A DNA stretch of 64,000 nt from positions 2,942,001 to 3,006,000 of the forward strand of contig NC_087082.1 of assembly GCF_026151205.1 (NCBI RefSeq), in the 5' to 3' direction. Under the pieces are notes generated by a model that saw only the letters and a list, made by a program, of their open reading frames with translations, did no database searches and was not told the DNA's origin. A program made the translations under genes and the position numbers. Source of the DNA: Bolinopsis microptera. Its lineage: Eukaryota; Ctenophora; Tentaculata; Lobata; Bolinopsidae. This document shows positions 26,801-44,800 of the stretch, piece after piece. Within the stretch, counting starts at the first letter, position 1, and each line of letters starts with the position of its first letter.

Positions 26801-29800
26801 CTTGTAATCAGAGAATATAATGATCACAAATCAGGTTAACAGTCAACATTCAGTCAAGCGGTATTTATATTTATTAAACTAAATACTTTGCTGGTTTGAT
26901 TTCCCAGGACAGGGTACCCGGTAAATTGGTGTTTATTTAAAGATATTTGCAATTTAAAGGTATTTACAGTAGTACTTACGGTGATGAGTTTAAACAGTAG
27001 AAAGGAAAGGTAGGTGCTGATGTGACATAAGACGTAAACTAAAGTGTGAACTGTGAGCAGTGCGGTGAGGAGGATCTCAGCTTCTACTGTCAGCCAATCT
27101 ATACCTGAAACATTCACCCAGTTAACAACAACTAACAACACTAACTCAATTAACATCATGAAAAATTGACCTTAGACTAACATTCCTTCAGCAGAGATCT
27201 GGTATAATACATTTTTGTCGTTTTCTAGAATAATCATTGCTATTTTGTCATTACACCATTTCGCCATCCACCGAGCGAAAAATTCATTAAGATTGGCGAA
27301 CACTTTTTTGCCAATTTTACCAGACATCTATGGCAAAAGTGGCAAAATAAAATACAAATTATTAGTTGATAACAGTACTGGAACTGCCATTTTACATCTT
27401 TCAGAATCAAATCCATGTTAGGCCAAATTTCTACAGTTAATTAGAATGTTTAACAATTAATTAATCTAATCCCTTTTTATTGCTAAATCTCAAATCGTCG
27501 ATCTTGTCTACACCACGTACATGAACTTGTCAAATTCGTAATAAAAGCTCCTTTATCCAATATAAATTAAATTACAACGAGCTTTAATTTTGGCTAACTT
27601 CCGAGATTTTCCGCCCTAAATGAACTGACGCCCTAATAACGGATTCAACTCTCCGAGAGGAAGCAGAGCATAATAGGCATCACAGGTTATTACAATAACT
27701 ACAGTTCTCATAATGTATTGCTCGTAATGTAGATTTGTCCTTCAATAAAAGGTGAAATTGCAATATATAGCCGGAAGGTCCAATTCTGTTCCCTGATTAT
27801 TAGAAGCACTGTTGCCTCCAAGAACGAATTTCTACACTCCTGCTAAACCTACTTACATATTAAATCTTATGACAAATTCTACCGATCAAATAGAATAACT
27901 TGACCGTTTCATGGCAAAAACATTTATTGATTTATTGATTTATTGATTTTGTATTAACCCTTCGGGGCTTGCGTGACCCTTATCATAGAACTGGTTTTCA
28001 GGACTGGCAGTCTGACCTATTGCCTTGCCAGCATAGGTGTACTTATATAGTTTTGCATGGTTCAGTTGCATAGTAGTGTCCGAATTGCACTGATTCTAGC
28101 CCGAGTAGTGTTCGAAAGGGCGCCCTGTTTTGACATACCTCCTGAGCCGGTACTCATTTCCTCTCTGAGCTAGCTAGTGTATATCAGTTTCTTGTTGGTG
28201 TTTTGTCTGTGTTTGTTTGTCCGTAGTAGGAATTTACTGTAACTTTGGAGACTGGGCGCAGTAATGTCCCAGAGGGTTTGTAACATCATGGATGCTGACT
28301 AAGCTTACCTGATCCTCTCCAACTTGTATTAGTACACTACTTCATTCACACCAGTCATTTCACTACATTAAACTGATTGAGGTTATGCCCTTTGTACATG
28401 CTGAAGCGATATGCTATGATGAGTGGAATATGAGTTAGGATCAGTTTGGTCCGTTTCATGGCAAAAACATTTATTGATTTAGAATAACTTGACATCTTGG
28501 GTATTTACAGAGTATATTTTGATGGATCGAATTAAGTAAATATTTGAGATTTGTCTTCGACAACCCGGTCCCCGGCCCACAGAGAGTTTATACCATAAAG
28601 ATTTTTTTCTCCCCAGCTGCAACCTTATTTCCACTAAGACAGAGCAGATGTTTGTTAACGTTTTTCCCACCGAAGAAATCAGAGATTTATTAAGAGAAAT
28701 TTCAGCGACTATCAATTTTAAACATTACGTGATGTCTTGTACAACCTCGATCATCCTGCATGACACCACCTCTCGTGAAATATAGAACATATTTTCATAT
28801 TCATGACAACACTTGGCTGCTTAACCGATAATAATAACATTGCACCGGCGCGGCACATCGTTTATCTCCACAGACAAGAGCAATCTCAATATTGGTATAA
28901 TGCTTGATATGACAGCTCCACTTCTCAAAGAATTACGCTATCTTTGCAATAAATATCTTATGTTAATCTGAAGTGGTTAATGTGTGCCACCACCCAAAAT
29001 ATAGCTGTCATTTATCAAGGCATTTAAATTTTATAAACATATTTTGCGTACATGTGTCCACTTGATAATATTAAGATCTCCACCATTTTAATAGAATCTC
29101 TCGAAACTCAGTAGTAGATAAGGTCAGCGTTGACATACGTTGACATACGTTGCATGCCACTTTTCGCGCGCGAAGCGTGCGCCGCGGTAACATACGTAAC
29201 ATGTATCAAGGTCAGCGGTTATTTCCAGAGCAGAAAATATTCTCGACAAAAAAACTTCTCCCATATTAGTCCGGCGTGTAAGATATCATATAAATAAATA
29301 ATACAAGTTGTCACGTACCAGTAGTAAATTATACAAGTTGTTACGTACCAGTAGTAAATTATACATGTTGTTACGTACCAGTAGTAAATTATACATGTTG
29401 TCACGTACCAGTAATAAATTATACAAGTTGTCACGTACCTGTAGTAAATTATACAAGTTGTCACGTACCAGTAGTAAATTATACAAGTTGTCACGTACCA
29501 GTAGTAAATTATACAAGTTGTCACGTACCAGTAATAAATTATACAAGTTGTCACGTACCAGTAGTAAATTATACAAGTTGTCACGTACCAGTAGTAAATT
29601 ATACAAGTTGTCACGTACCAGTAGTAAATTATACAAGTTTTTACGTACCAGTAGTAAATTATACTTGCATTGTCACGTACCAGTAGTAAATTATACTTGC
29701 ATTGTCACGTACCAGTAGTAAATTATACAAGTTGTCACGTACCAGTAGTAAATTATACAAGTTGTCACGTACCAGTAGTAAATTATACAAGTTGTCACGT

Positions 29801-41800: not shown

Positions 41801-44800
41801 CTATAACATATTACACAGTAATGAGAGAGAGAGAGAGAGCAAGTCCCGTAACTCTTGCCGTTCTGCTCACGCAATTTTATGTAACATTTGTGGTACAAAA
41901 CCATCAATTAAACCACTTACCATCGGCCGATTTTTAAAAAAATTTCCTATGGGCTTCATCAGAGTTTTGTCGACACTATACCGAAAAAATCAGTCCCGTA
42001 ACTCTTACCGTTTTTTTGTATAACCGACCGGAAATTACACACGGACAGACAGACAGACAGACACACACACACACACACACATTCTGGTGTTATTAAGGTG
42101 ATGGCTATGTGTGAAGTGTAAGCTCTGTTACACCATATCTTTGCGCAGAGACTGGAACATATAAAGTTTGTTTTGTTAAGCATTTGTGCCCGTTTCAACT
42201 TAATAAAGAAGACTCTTATATCATTTTAACTTTACTCTTATATCATTTTAACTTATACCATTTTAACTTTACACAACCGTCTAATCCACCCCCTTAAATA
42301 GACAATAGTAAATAATAATAATAAAATAGACAATAGTGCTATTAATCAAGGAAGAAACAAATACGAAAAAACAAAGGTAACAGCGACTATCGAAGAGTGT
42401 GGTAATTGATGATAATAAACAGATTAGCTGCAATTAACAGTTAATTAATTACCTTGACAAGTTGTCGGCACCACACCATCTGGAGGTGGTCAGGAGAGAG
42501 TTGTACTTCTGGTATACAAGTTGTTAACACGTTAACTGTGTTATCTCCTGATTCTGGAAGGAAAAGGTGTTATCTACTTCTTCTTATTACTACTTTGTAC
42601 AATGTACATTATATTTTGGTTATGTACTTCTTATCACTACTTTGTACAATGTACATTCTATTTTGGTTATTTTTAACTACTTTTACCTTTTTACTATCAT
42701 ATCGAATGGGTTTTTTTCTATCCTAGAGTTTAATGTTAGATATTAACTTCCGCATACCTTTGACATTAAAGTTAGTTAATCTCAGCAGCTCTTAGTTTAT
42801 ACACACGAAATTCGTCGAAATTGTTTAAATTGAGAGATTCGTATCGAATTACCAAAATTAACTATGAGCCACCTATAGTGTCAATGAAGGTACATTTATA
42901 TTGTATGAAGGTATAATGATAGTTAGCTTTAAATCTAGAGTTCTATATAAAATATAATTAGCAATAATTAGCAATAATTATCAACAATACCCTGAATAAT
43001 GGTTTGATAAGGTTGAACCATGGTGTCTCTGATACCACTGCCAATAGAAACGAAAACTTTTTCCTCGTATAATTTTGGGTTCGACTTCACATACGATTTC
43101 CACTCGCTGAGGGATAAGAGGTTAAACAGATGATCAAGTAAAATTAGTAATTAACTGTAAAATTGTTTACTTACTATTTTGATCCATTTGTTTTCATTTT
43201 TGGAGAACCATTATTATCAAAATTCAAATCATGTGCAAGGTAAAAAAATTCGATTTTATGAATTGTTACTTTAACTCTTTAAAATTGTTTTTGCGTGTCA
43301 CTATATTTTAGCCAGAAGATAAAAGTTTGTGCGACTTGATTGTAAAATTTCCGTATAGTGCCAAATAGATACCTGTAGGATCATTCTCTGCACGAAAATT
43401 ACCTATAAAAAGAATGAATATGCCAGTCAAACTCGTAGGGGGCTGCGTTGTGAGGGGTGGAGAGAGTCAGGACCAGATCCACTGAGTCGTACTGAAACTC
43501 GGGGTGAACAAAGACAGAACGAGCCACCAGACCTCCCATAGAGTGTCCAATCAGGATCACCTGACAAACAGATAGTTGAGGAGACCAACAAAAGGCAGCT
43601 TAAGAACGGATTACAATGATCAATCAGGTACAAATTATTAAACGACTCTTCATATCTTATAGAGAGTTATTCTATTAAGAAATCAATTTTAATTAAATCT
43701 TTAATATCTCAGTTTTAACTCATAATAAACATACCTTTTTGGGAGTAGAATAAAGTTTCTGTATAGCCTGTAGCGCAACTACAACATAGTCAGACTGGGT
43801 GTACAGCACACCCCCGTAAAGACCAGAGAACTCCTCGTTAAAATCTACTGTAAAGTAGTTGAAGTGGTGAAGCTTGTGGAGGTCCTCGTGCATTCTGTAC
43901 GCTACTGAAGCTAGAGAACGGACCTGTAATTAACAGGGAATTAGTCCTCGTGCATTCTGTACGCTACTGAAGCTAGAGAACGGACCTGTAATTAACGGGG
44001 AATTAGTCCTGGTGCATTCTGTACGCTACTGAAGCTAGAGAACGGACCTGTAATTAACGGGGAATTAGTCCTGGTGCATTCTGTACGCTACTGAAGCTAG
44101 AGAACGGACCTGTAATTAACAGGGAATTAGTCCTCGTGCATTCTGTACGCTACTGAAGCTAGAGAACGGACCTGTAATTAACAGGGAATTAGTCCTAGTG
44201 CATTCTGTACGCTACTGAAGCTAGAGAACGGACCTGTAATTAACAGGGAATTAGTCCTAGTGCATTCTGTACGCTACTGAAGCTAGAGAACGGACCTGTA
44301 ATTAACGGGGAATTAGTCCTAGTGCATTCTGTACGCTACTGAAGCTAGAGAACGGACCTGTAATTAACAGGGAATTAGTCCTCGTGCATTCTGTACGCTA
44401 CTGAAGCTAGAGAACGGACCTGTAATTAACAGGGAATTAGTCCTCGTGCATTCTGTACGCTACTGAAGCTAGAGAACGGACCGGTGATTAACAGGGAATT
44501 AGTCCTCGTGCATTCTGTACGATACTGAAGCTAGAGAGCGGACCTGTAATTAACAGGGAATTAGTCCTAGTGCATTCTGTACGCTACCGGACCTGTAATT
44601 ATCGGGGGGTTATGATTCTTGATCATGGACTGGGCACTCAGGTTACTGTATTATGTGCTATCATTGGAGTTTCATCTGAGCTGTGGCCTGTGGGTAGAAC
44701 TTGGTACGGTAGCCAAAACAACAAGGTTTAAGTTACATAAAATATCATCGAATCATTGCACCATTACTACTATACAGTTACAGTACAAAAAATCATGTAA

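What the first reader, a model, noticed from the sequence alone, without database searches (positions are those of the whole stretch)
29290..44600. Four minisatellites in one gene, each built on a splice junction of that gene
In PGAP1 four unrelated arrays (62, 45, 35 and 30 bp units) each start exactly at an exon edge, and the unit contains the real splice site: 20 intron + 42 exon bases, 20 + 25, 17 exon + 18 intron, and 6 exon + 24 intron. Two are acceptors and two are donors. Chance placement of four arrays on 34 junctions in 30 kb looks very unlikely. The result is 8 to about 20 copies of a usable splice site in a row, with the true one at the exon end. It could reflect a replication or repair process that targets splice sites (for example slippage at R-loops or breaks), tolerance because the edge copy keeps splicing intact, or a regulatory device. 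I know of no named system like this.
Basis: partly seen in the sequence, partly recalled or inferred. Interest (0 to 1): 0.92.

Follow-up and report, generated by a model that had tools for sequence, protein, structure and literature searches.

The report
Repeat arrays straddling comb-jelly splice sites
In one gene of a comb jelly, four stretches of repeated DNA each copy the edge of an exon together with its splice site; this resembles a rarely noticed feature known from lancelets ("mirages"), and it looks tolerated by the gene rather than used by it.

Summary
The window lies in a comb jelly, Bolinopsis microptera. PGAP1 has 18 exons and 34 junctions; my exon model gives all 847 residues of the NCBI protein. 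Four minisatellites straddle its exon ends: two acceptors (20 intron + 42 exon bases; 15 + 30, not 20 + 25) and two donors (17 exon + 18 intron; 6 + 24). They do not start at the exon edge but end 6-42 bases inside the exon. The protein uses the exon-edge copy at all four.

"No named system" is wrong: such arrays are called "mirages" in amphioxus (PMC3087553, PMC3902484; passages seen). Four more were found here: two in an EDC4_C-domain gene, one in a DUF4139-like gene, one in an ADAM-like gene.

Within PGAP1, chance placement gives P from 5e-6 to 3e-3 by threshold, after the fact. Elsewhere the excess is weak: 3 of 7-8 sampled arrays in predicted gene bodies (P 0.04-0.07), 3-5 of 26 overall (P 0.10-0.17). 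A genome-wide word test shows no excess of donor-bearing arrays by array count.

Best reading: ordinary minisatellite birth, tolerated because the edge copy keeps splicing intact.

The parts
14882..45364 (-). PGAP1 (GPI inositol-deacylase-like) coding span, 18 exons, 17 introns
   Evidence: translation equals P0121 (847 aa) over its whole length; PF07819 E 9.4e-49 over exons 2-4
43882..44587 (-). 62-bp array x 11.4 across the acceptor of exon 43735-43923: 20 intron + 42 exon bases per unit
   Evidence: Pfam PGAP1 match (residues 80-212) runs through the junction
40612..40887 (-). 35-bp array x 7.9 (100% matches) across the donor of exon 40871-40991: 17 exon + 18 intron bases
31400..32078 (-). 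45-bp array x 15.1 across the acceptor of exon 31303-31429: 15 intron + 30 exon bases
29295..29868 (-). 30-bp array x 19.0 across the donor of exon 29863-29956: 6 exon + 24 intron bases
43735..43923 (-). PGAP1 exon 3, whose 5' edge is the terminal copy of the 62-bp array
40871..40991 (-). PGAP1 exon 7, whose 3' edge is the terminal copy of the 35-bp array
31303..31429 (-). PGAP1 exon 13, whose 5' edge is the terminal copy of the 45-bp array
29863..29956 (-). PGAP1 exon 15, whose 3' edge is the terminal copy of the 30-bp array

Best explanation
These are mirage-type minisatellites: tandem amplifications of a short segment that happened to span an exon-intron edge. Step 1 (inferred): slippage or staggered-break repair duplicates 30-62 bp in a genome that is rich in minisatellites. 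Step 2 (shown at the level of the annotated protein, not of RNA): the copy that touches the exon body remains the splice site in use, so the protein is unchanged and all other copies are intron. Step 3 (inferred): freed from coding constraint, the intronic copies expand and are homogenised by unequal exchange or slippage. Step 4 (inferred): the spliceosome prefers the edge copy because it is paired with the intact exon; using another copy would add stops, shift the frame or insert short peptides.
For: All 847 residues of the annotated protein come from splicing at the edge copies. Two more arrays in an EDC4_C-domain gene (L023:5002-7099, 30 bp x 69, donor; L023:3807-3990, 46 bp x 4, acceptor) behave the same way: the annotated B. 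microptera protein P0241 and P0242, a 54%-identical protein encoded on a 1346-base contig, read through both junctions without any insert. Intronic copies have drifted away from coding: 3 of 11 copies of the 62-bp unit carry an in-frame TAG. Reading past the edge copy gives a stop in the 62-, 35- and 30-bp PGAP1 arrays and in L008. Minisatellites are common here: 26 arrays (period >=19, >=2.5 copies, score >=100) in 266 kb outside the window. The donor word is not over-represented by array count: 5 arrays on contig C1 for AGGTAAGT and 5 for the shuffled AGGATAGT, with sample frequencies of 8 and 11.
Against: PGAP1 itself is hard to get by chance (P 5e-6 to 3e-3 by threshold), and all four of its arrays with score >=500 are on junctions while none of its 10 weaker ones (score 50-168) is. 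In the sample 3 of 7 (or 3 of 8) arrays in predicted gene bodies straddle, against 0.84-1.01 expected (P 0.041-0.066). By raw match count the donor word far exceeds its controls: 1380 against 415, 275 and 12, which I read as copy number but did not resolve beyond the about 100 listed places of each search. No RNA was examined.
Confidence: 0.68

Rival explanations
1. Splice junctions are true hot spots for array birth or expansion (for example through R-loops, breaks or the composition step at exon edges), so genic arrays fall on them more often than chance allows.
For: PGAP1: 4 of 4 strong arrays. The EDC4_C gene holds two. 3 of 7-8 sampled arrays in predicted gene bodies straddle, P 0.041-0.066; one further array ends 6 bp from an EXOC1 (Sec3) acceptor (L033:4747-5406). 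Acceptor-like motifs in the units of 26 sampled arrays: Fisher P 0.034.
Against: Donor-like motifs in the same units: P 0.58. All sampled arrays: 3-5 of 26 straddle, expected 1.1-3.0, P 0.095-0.166. Annotation-free edge test: 4 of 158 edges below 0.05, 7.9 expected. Donor word and shuffled word give the same number of arrays on C1, and of the first 7 AGGTAAGT arrays only 1 lies on an exon end, 1 is undecided, 5 do not.
Confidence: 0.22
2. The extra splice sites are a device: decoys or alternative sites that regulate splicing or add repeat peptides.
For: Nearly all copies keep AG or GT. The 45-bp PGAP1 unit and the 30-bp EDC4_C-gene unit are multiples of three and open, so inner sites could add 15 or 10 residues per copy.
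Against: Homogenisation alone keeps the dinucleotides. One 44-bp copy breaks the frame of the 45-bp array. Inner sites in three of the four PGAP1 arrays lead to stops. The annotated proteins carry no extra repeats.
Confidence: 0.04
3. Artefact: mis-assembled repeats or wrong exon ends.
For: Tandem arrays are where assemblies err; one array is 100% identical over 7.9 copies.
Against: Exon ends agree with the annotated protein, and in the EDC4_C-domain gene also with P0242. Most arrays hold private variants between copies. The copy numbers themselves could not be checked.
Confidence: 0.04
4. The arrays are pieces of a dispersed mobile element or of intron-making elements that insert at splice sites.
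For: Some arrays here are dispersed: one 32-bp unit recurs at C1:36576 and C1:761375 with similar flanks.
Against: The four PGAP1 units differ from each other, and each holds the exon's own coding bases. The one unit checked genome-wide (30 bases of the 62-bp unit, exact match) occurs only in its own array, 5 places.
Confidence: 0.02

Closest known systems
Amphioxus 'mirages' (Adh3, globins BflGb6 and BflGb9, PGBD5, TnC)
   Same: Minisatellite-like tandem copies that span an exon-intron boundary; 5' and 3' boundaries both affected; repeats carry AG/GT; splicing reported as normal; unit lengths overlap (10-72 bp in Adh3 as quoted in PMC3087553; 30-62 bp here). Seen as passages.
   Different: Another phylum (a ctenophore); four in one gene and up to 69 copies; length polymorphism and somatic instability, reported for amphioxus, could not be tested.
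Intron gain by tandem duplication of AG/GT proto-splice sites
   Same: Tandem copies carrying splice signals; PMC3087553 (passage) proposes mirages as a route to new introns.
   Different: Here the introns already have working splice sites and the arrays lie at their ends; whether any PGAP1 intron position is new was not tested.
Internal tandem repeats altering human gene structure (PMC2812944)
   Same: Tandem repeats that affect exon structure.
   Different: Seen only as a search listing and start of abstract; segmental-duplication paralogues, not junction arrays as far as that shows.

Membership tests
Mirage (amphioxus-type boundary minisatellite) | Tandem units span an exon-intron boundary | tested here: met
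   Four PGAP1 arrays against an exon model equal to P0121
Mirage (amphioxus-type boundary minisatellite) | Both 5' and 3' boundaries can be affected | tested here: met
   Two acceptors and two donors
Mirage (amphioxus-type boundary minisatellite) | Many repeats carry AG/GT signals | tested here: met
   10/11, 15/15, 8/8, 19/19 copies
Mirage (amphioxus-type boundary minisatellite) | Splicing is not disturbed | tested here: inconclusive
   Annotated proteins use the edge copy; no RNA was available, and whether the annotation rests on RNA was not seen
Mirage (amphioxus-type boundary minisatellite) | Copies at the cluster boundary escape homogenisation | tested here: inconclusive
   Edge copy of the 45-bp array has a private variant; the edge copies of the other three arrays equal the consensus
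Mirage (amphioxus-type boundary minisatellite) | Length polymorphism and somatic instability | not testable with these tools
   One assembly only
Dispersed or mobile repeat family | Unit occurs at unlinked sites | tested here: not met
   30 exact bases of the 62-bp unit: 5 places, all in its own array; the other three units were not searched

The most novel reading that the evidence does not exclude
In this ctenophore, arrays inside genes are born or expand preferentially at exon-intron edges, perhaps through a break- or R-loop-linked process, so that the spliceosome's landmarks are also mutational hot spots; mirages would then be a recurrent outcome in distant animal lineages rather than a lancelet oddity.
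Probability: 0.22. Interest if true: 0.78.

Novelty: new member of a known kind. Interest (0 to 1): 0.45.

Why it matters
It moves a curiosity that I saw described only for lancelets into a ctenophore, with eight clear cases at annotated or homology-supported exon ends, and it gives a compact genome in which the question 'are splice junctions hot spots for tandem amplification?' can be answered by one intersect with the existing annotation. If the answer were yes, it would bear on how introns grow and how new ones arise. If no, mirages are what neutral array birth leaves wherever the edge copy protects the exon.

Tried and rejected
Annotation-free edge test: no excess (4 of 158 non-window edges below 0.05, 7.9 expected); its null included exon interiors, so it has little power. 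Junction-duplication test: discarded, because exons were predicted inside arrays. Collapsed-array test: the predictor missed the 69-copy donor array and counted three that I hold doubtful (L033:6396, L032:1, L009:1360). Word test: the first impression from 1380 against 12 matches was given up after a second control word gave 415 (and 275 reversed) and equal array numbers on C1. Myosin exon doubling at C3:9153601-9155300 is an ordinary alternative-exon pair, not a mirage. Rfam search of the window: nothing. An acceptor-word search did not complete. Papers: passages only of PMC3087553, PMC3902484, PMC10232365, PMC11797021, PMC12221973; Canestro 2002 is not held and was seen only as a reference-list entry. 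Searches for an earlier ctenophore report listed none that I could recognise as such by title; that is not proof of absence.

Full report
What is there. The window (contig C11:2942001-3006000 of a 264.65-Mb genome) comes from a comb jelly. The protein search returned, at 100% identity and coverage to my hand-built PGAP1, a protein named 'GPI inositol-deacylase-like [Bolinopsis microptera]' on a contig of the same length as C11. Thirteen contigs of 15-26 Mb and the size agree with the 265 Mb and 13 chromosomes given for that species in PMC11797021 (passage). The PGAP1 exon model has 18 exons and 17 introns between 14882 and 45364 and reproduces all 847 residues.

The four arrays. They straddle the acceptor of exon 3 (62 bp: 20 intron + 42 exon), the donor of exon 7 (35 bp: 17 exon + 18 intron), the acceptor of exon 13 (45 bp: 15 intron + 30 exon) and the donor of exon 15 (30 bp: 6 exon + 24 intron). 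Splice dinucleotides are kept in 52 of the 53 copies that the script read (10 of 11, 15 of 15, 8 of 8, 19 of 19). Intronic copies are not held to the code: 3 of 11 copies of the 62-bp unit carry an in-frame TAG. Beyond the edge copy the frame meets a stop in three of the four arrays; the 45-bp unit stays open, except that one copy is 44 bp long.

More of the same. Among 26 arrays (period >=19, >=2.5 copies, score >=100) in 266 kb of other sequence (25 stretches of 10 kb on 13 contigs plus 16 kb of extensions), three clearly straddle exon ends by reading the flanks: L008:8986-9281 (48 bp x 6.1, donor; a gene with a DUF4139 match below the curated cut-off), L023:3807-3990 (46 bp x 4, acceptor) and L023:5002-7099 (30 bp x 69, donor), both in one gene with an EDC4_C domain. 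For that gene the annotated B. microptera protein (P0241) and P0242, a 54%-identical protein encoded on a 1346-base contig, confirm both junctions; my query differed from P0241 by four extra residues at an exon edge without an array and by one residue at its end. A fourth case outside the sample is C1:14124772-14125043 (44 bp, donor) after an exon that reads like the end of a reprolysin and a disintegrin domain (Reprolysin 20.3 bits, cut-off 20.8).

Is it more than chance? Inside PGAP1, yes by every threshold used (P 5e-6 to 3e-3), but the gene was chosen for its arrays. Outside it the support is weak: in predicted gene bodies 3 of 7 (or 3 of 8) arrays straddle against 0.84-1.01 expected, P 0.041-0.066; over all 26 arrays 3-5 straddle by prediction against 1.1-3.0, P 0.095-0.166; donor-like motifs in the units show no excess (P 0.58), acceptor-like motifs a slight one (P 0.034); an annotation-free edge test shows none.

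Genome-wide word test. Three exact copies of the donor word AGGTAAGT at spacings of 12-42 bases occur 1380 times, against 12 for the word read backwards. A shuffled word, AGGATAGT, occurs 415 times and its reversal 275, so match counts follow copy number. Counting separate places on contig C1, the one contig that both capped lists (about 100 places each) appear to cover wholly, gives 5 for the donor word and 5 for the control, with single-word frequencies of 8 and 11 in 308 kb. Of the first 7 donor-word arrays, flanks show 1 at an exon end, 1 undecided (its edge was not reached after 1.5 kb) and 5 not, two of these being one dispersed repeat. About half (4 of 8) of the single AGGTAAGT words in the sample are predicted donors. 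A strong junction hot spot should have shown here; a modest one is not excluded.

What it is. [quoted passage not shown] PMC3902484 (passage) adds PGBD5 and mentions TnC. The PGAP1 arrays meet the structural features; polymorphism and RNA could not be tested. I therefore file them as members of that descriptive kind in a new phylum.

Mechanism. Most likely a short duplication arose across an exon edge, the copy joined to the exon body kept its role, the rest became intron, and the array then grew. The use of the edge copy is shown at the level of annotated protein; birth, growth and the choice by the spliceosome are inferred. The most novel reading left open is that genic arrays favour junctions.

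Noticed in passing
15943-26979 (PGAP1 intron 16), about 17290-18690 and 21860-23360, + strand: Two similar genes for multi-pass membrane proteins, read by eye, lie nested in an 11-kb PGAP1 intron on the opposite strand and look like a recent duplicate pair.
   Followed up: no
54749-55714, - strand: 322-aa ORF that reads like a Tc1/mariner-type transposase (recalled, not family-tested) inside an intron of the 5-oxoprolinase-like gene.
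   Followed up: no
about 35030-35770: Long near-perfect inverted repeat (fold-back) in a PGAP1 intron, ending in a C run; seen in the sequence.
   Followed up: no
7781-8144: 13-bp unit x 28, 100% matches, the purest long array of the window; no gene was recognised around it.
   Followed up: no
33761-34037: GA microsatellite of about 277 bases in the 3.9-kb PGAP1 intron 11.
   Followed up: no
L033:4747-5406: 21-bp array x 31.4 in an EXOC1 (Sec3_C-term, E 1.3e-10) intron that ends 6 bp before the acceptor; possibly an old straddling array.
   Followed up: partly
L034:1-1700 (C3:9153601-9155300): Myosin head exon present in two diverged copies separated by a very short intron, like mutually exclusive exons.
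   Followed up: partly
L012:4275-4599: 48-bp array x 6.8 inside an open reading frame with apparently coding flanks on both sides.
   Followed up: no
C1:36576-37703 and C1:761375-762150: The same 32-bp unit, holding AGGTAAGT, forms arrays at two sites with similar non-coding flanks.
   Followed up: partly
45741-46592, - strand: Diphthine-ammonia ligase-like gene without introns next to PGAP1; P0241 of another gene bears the doubtful source name 'bre1' although it has an EDC4_C domain.
   Followed up: partly
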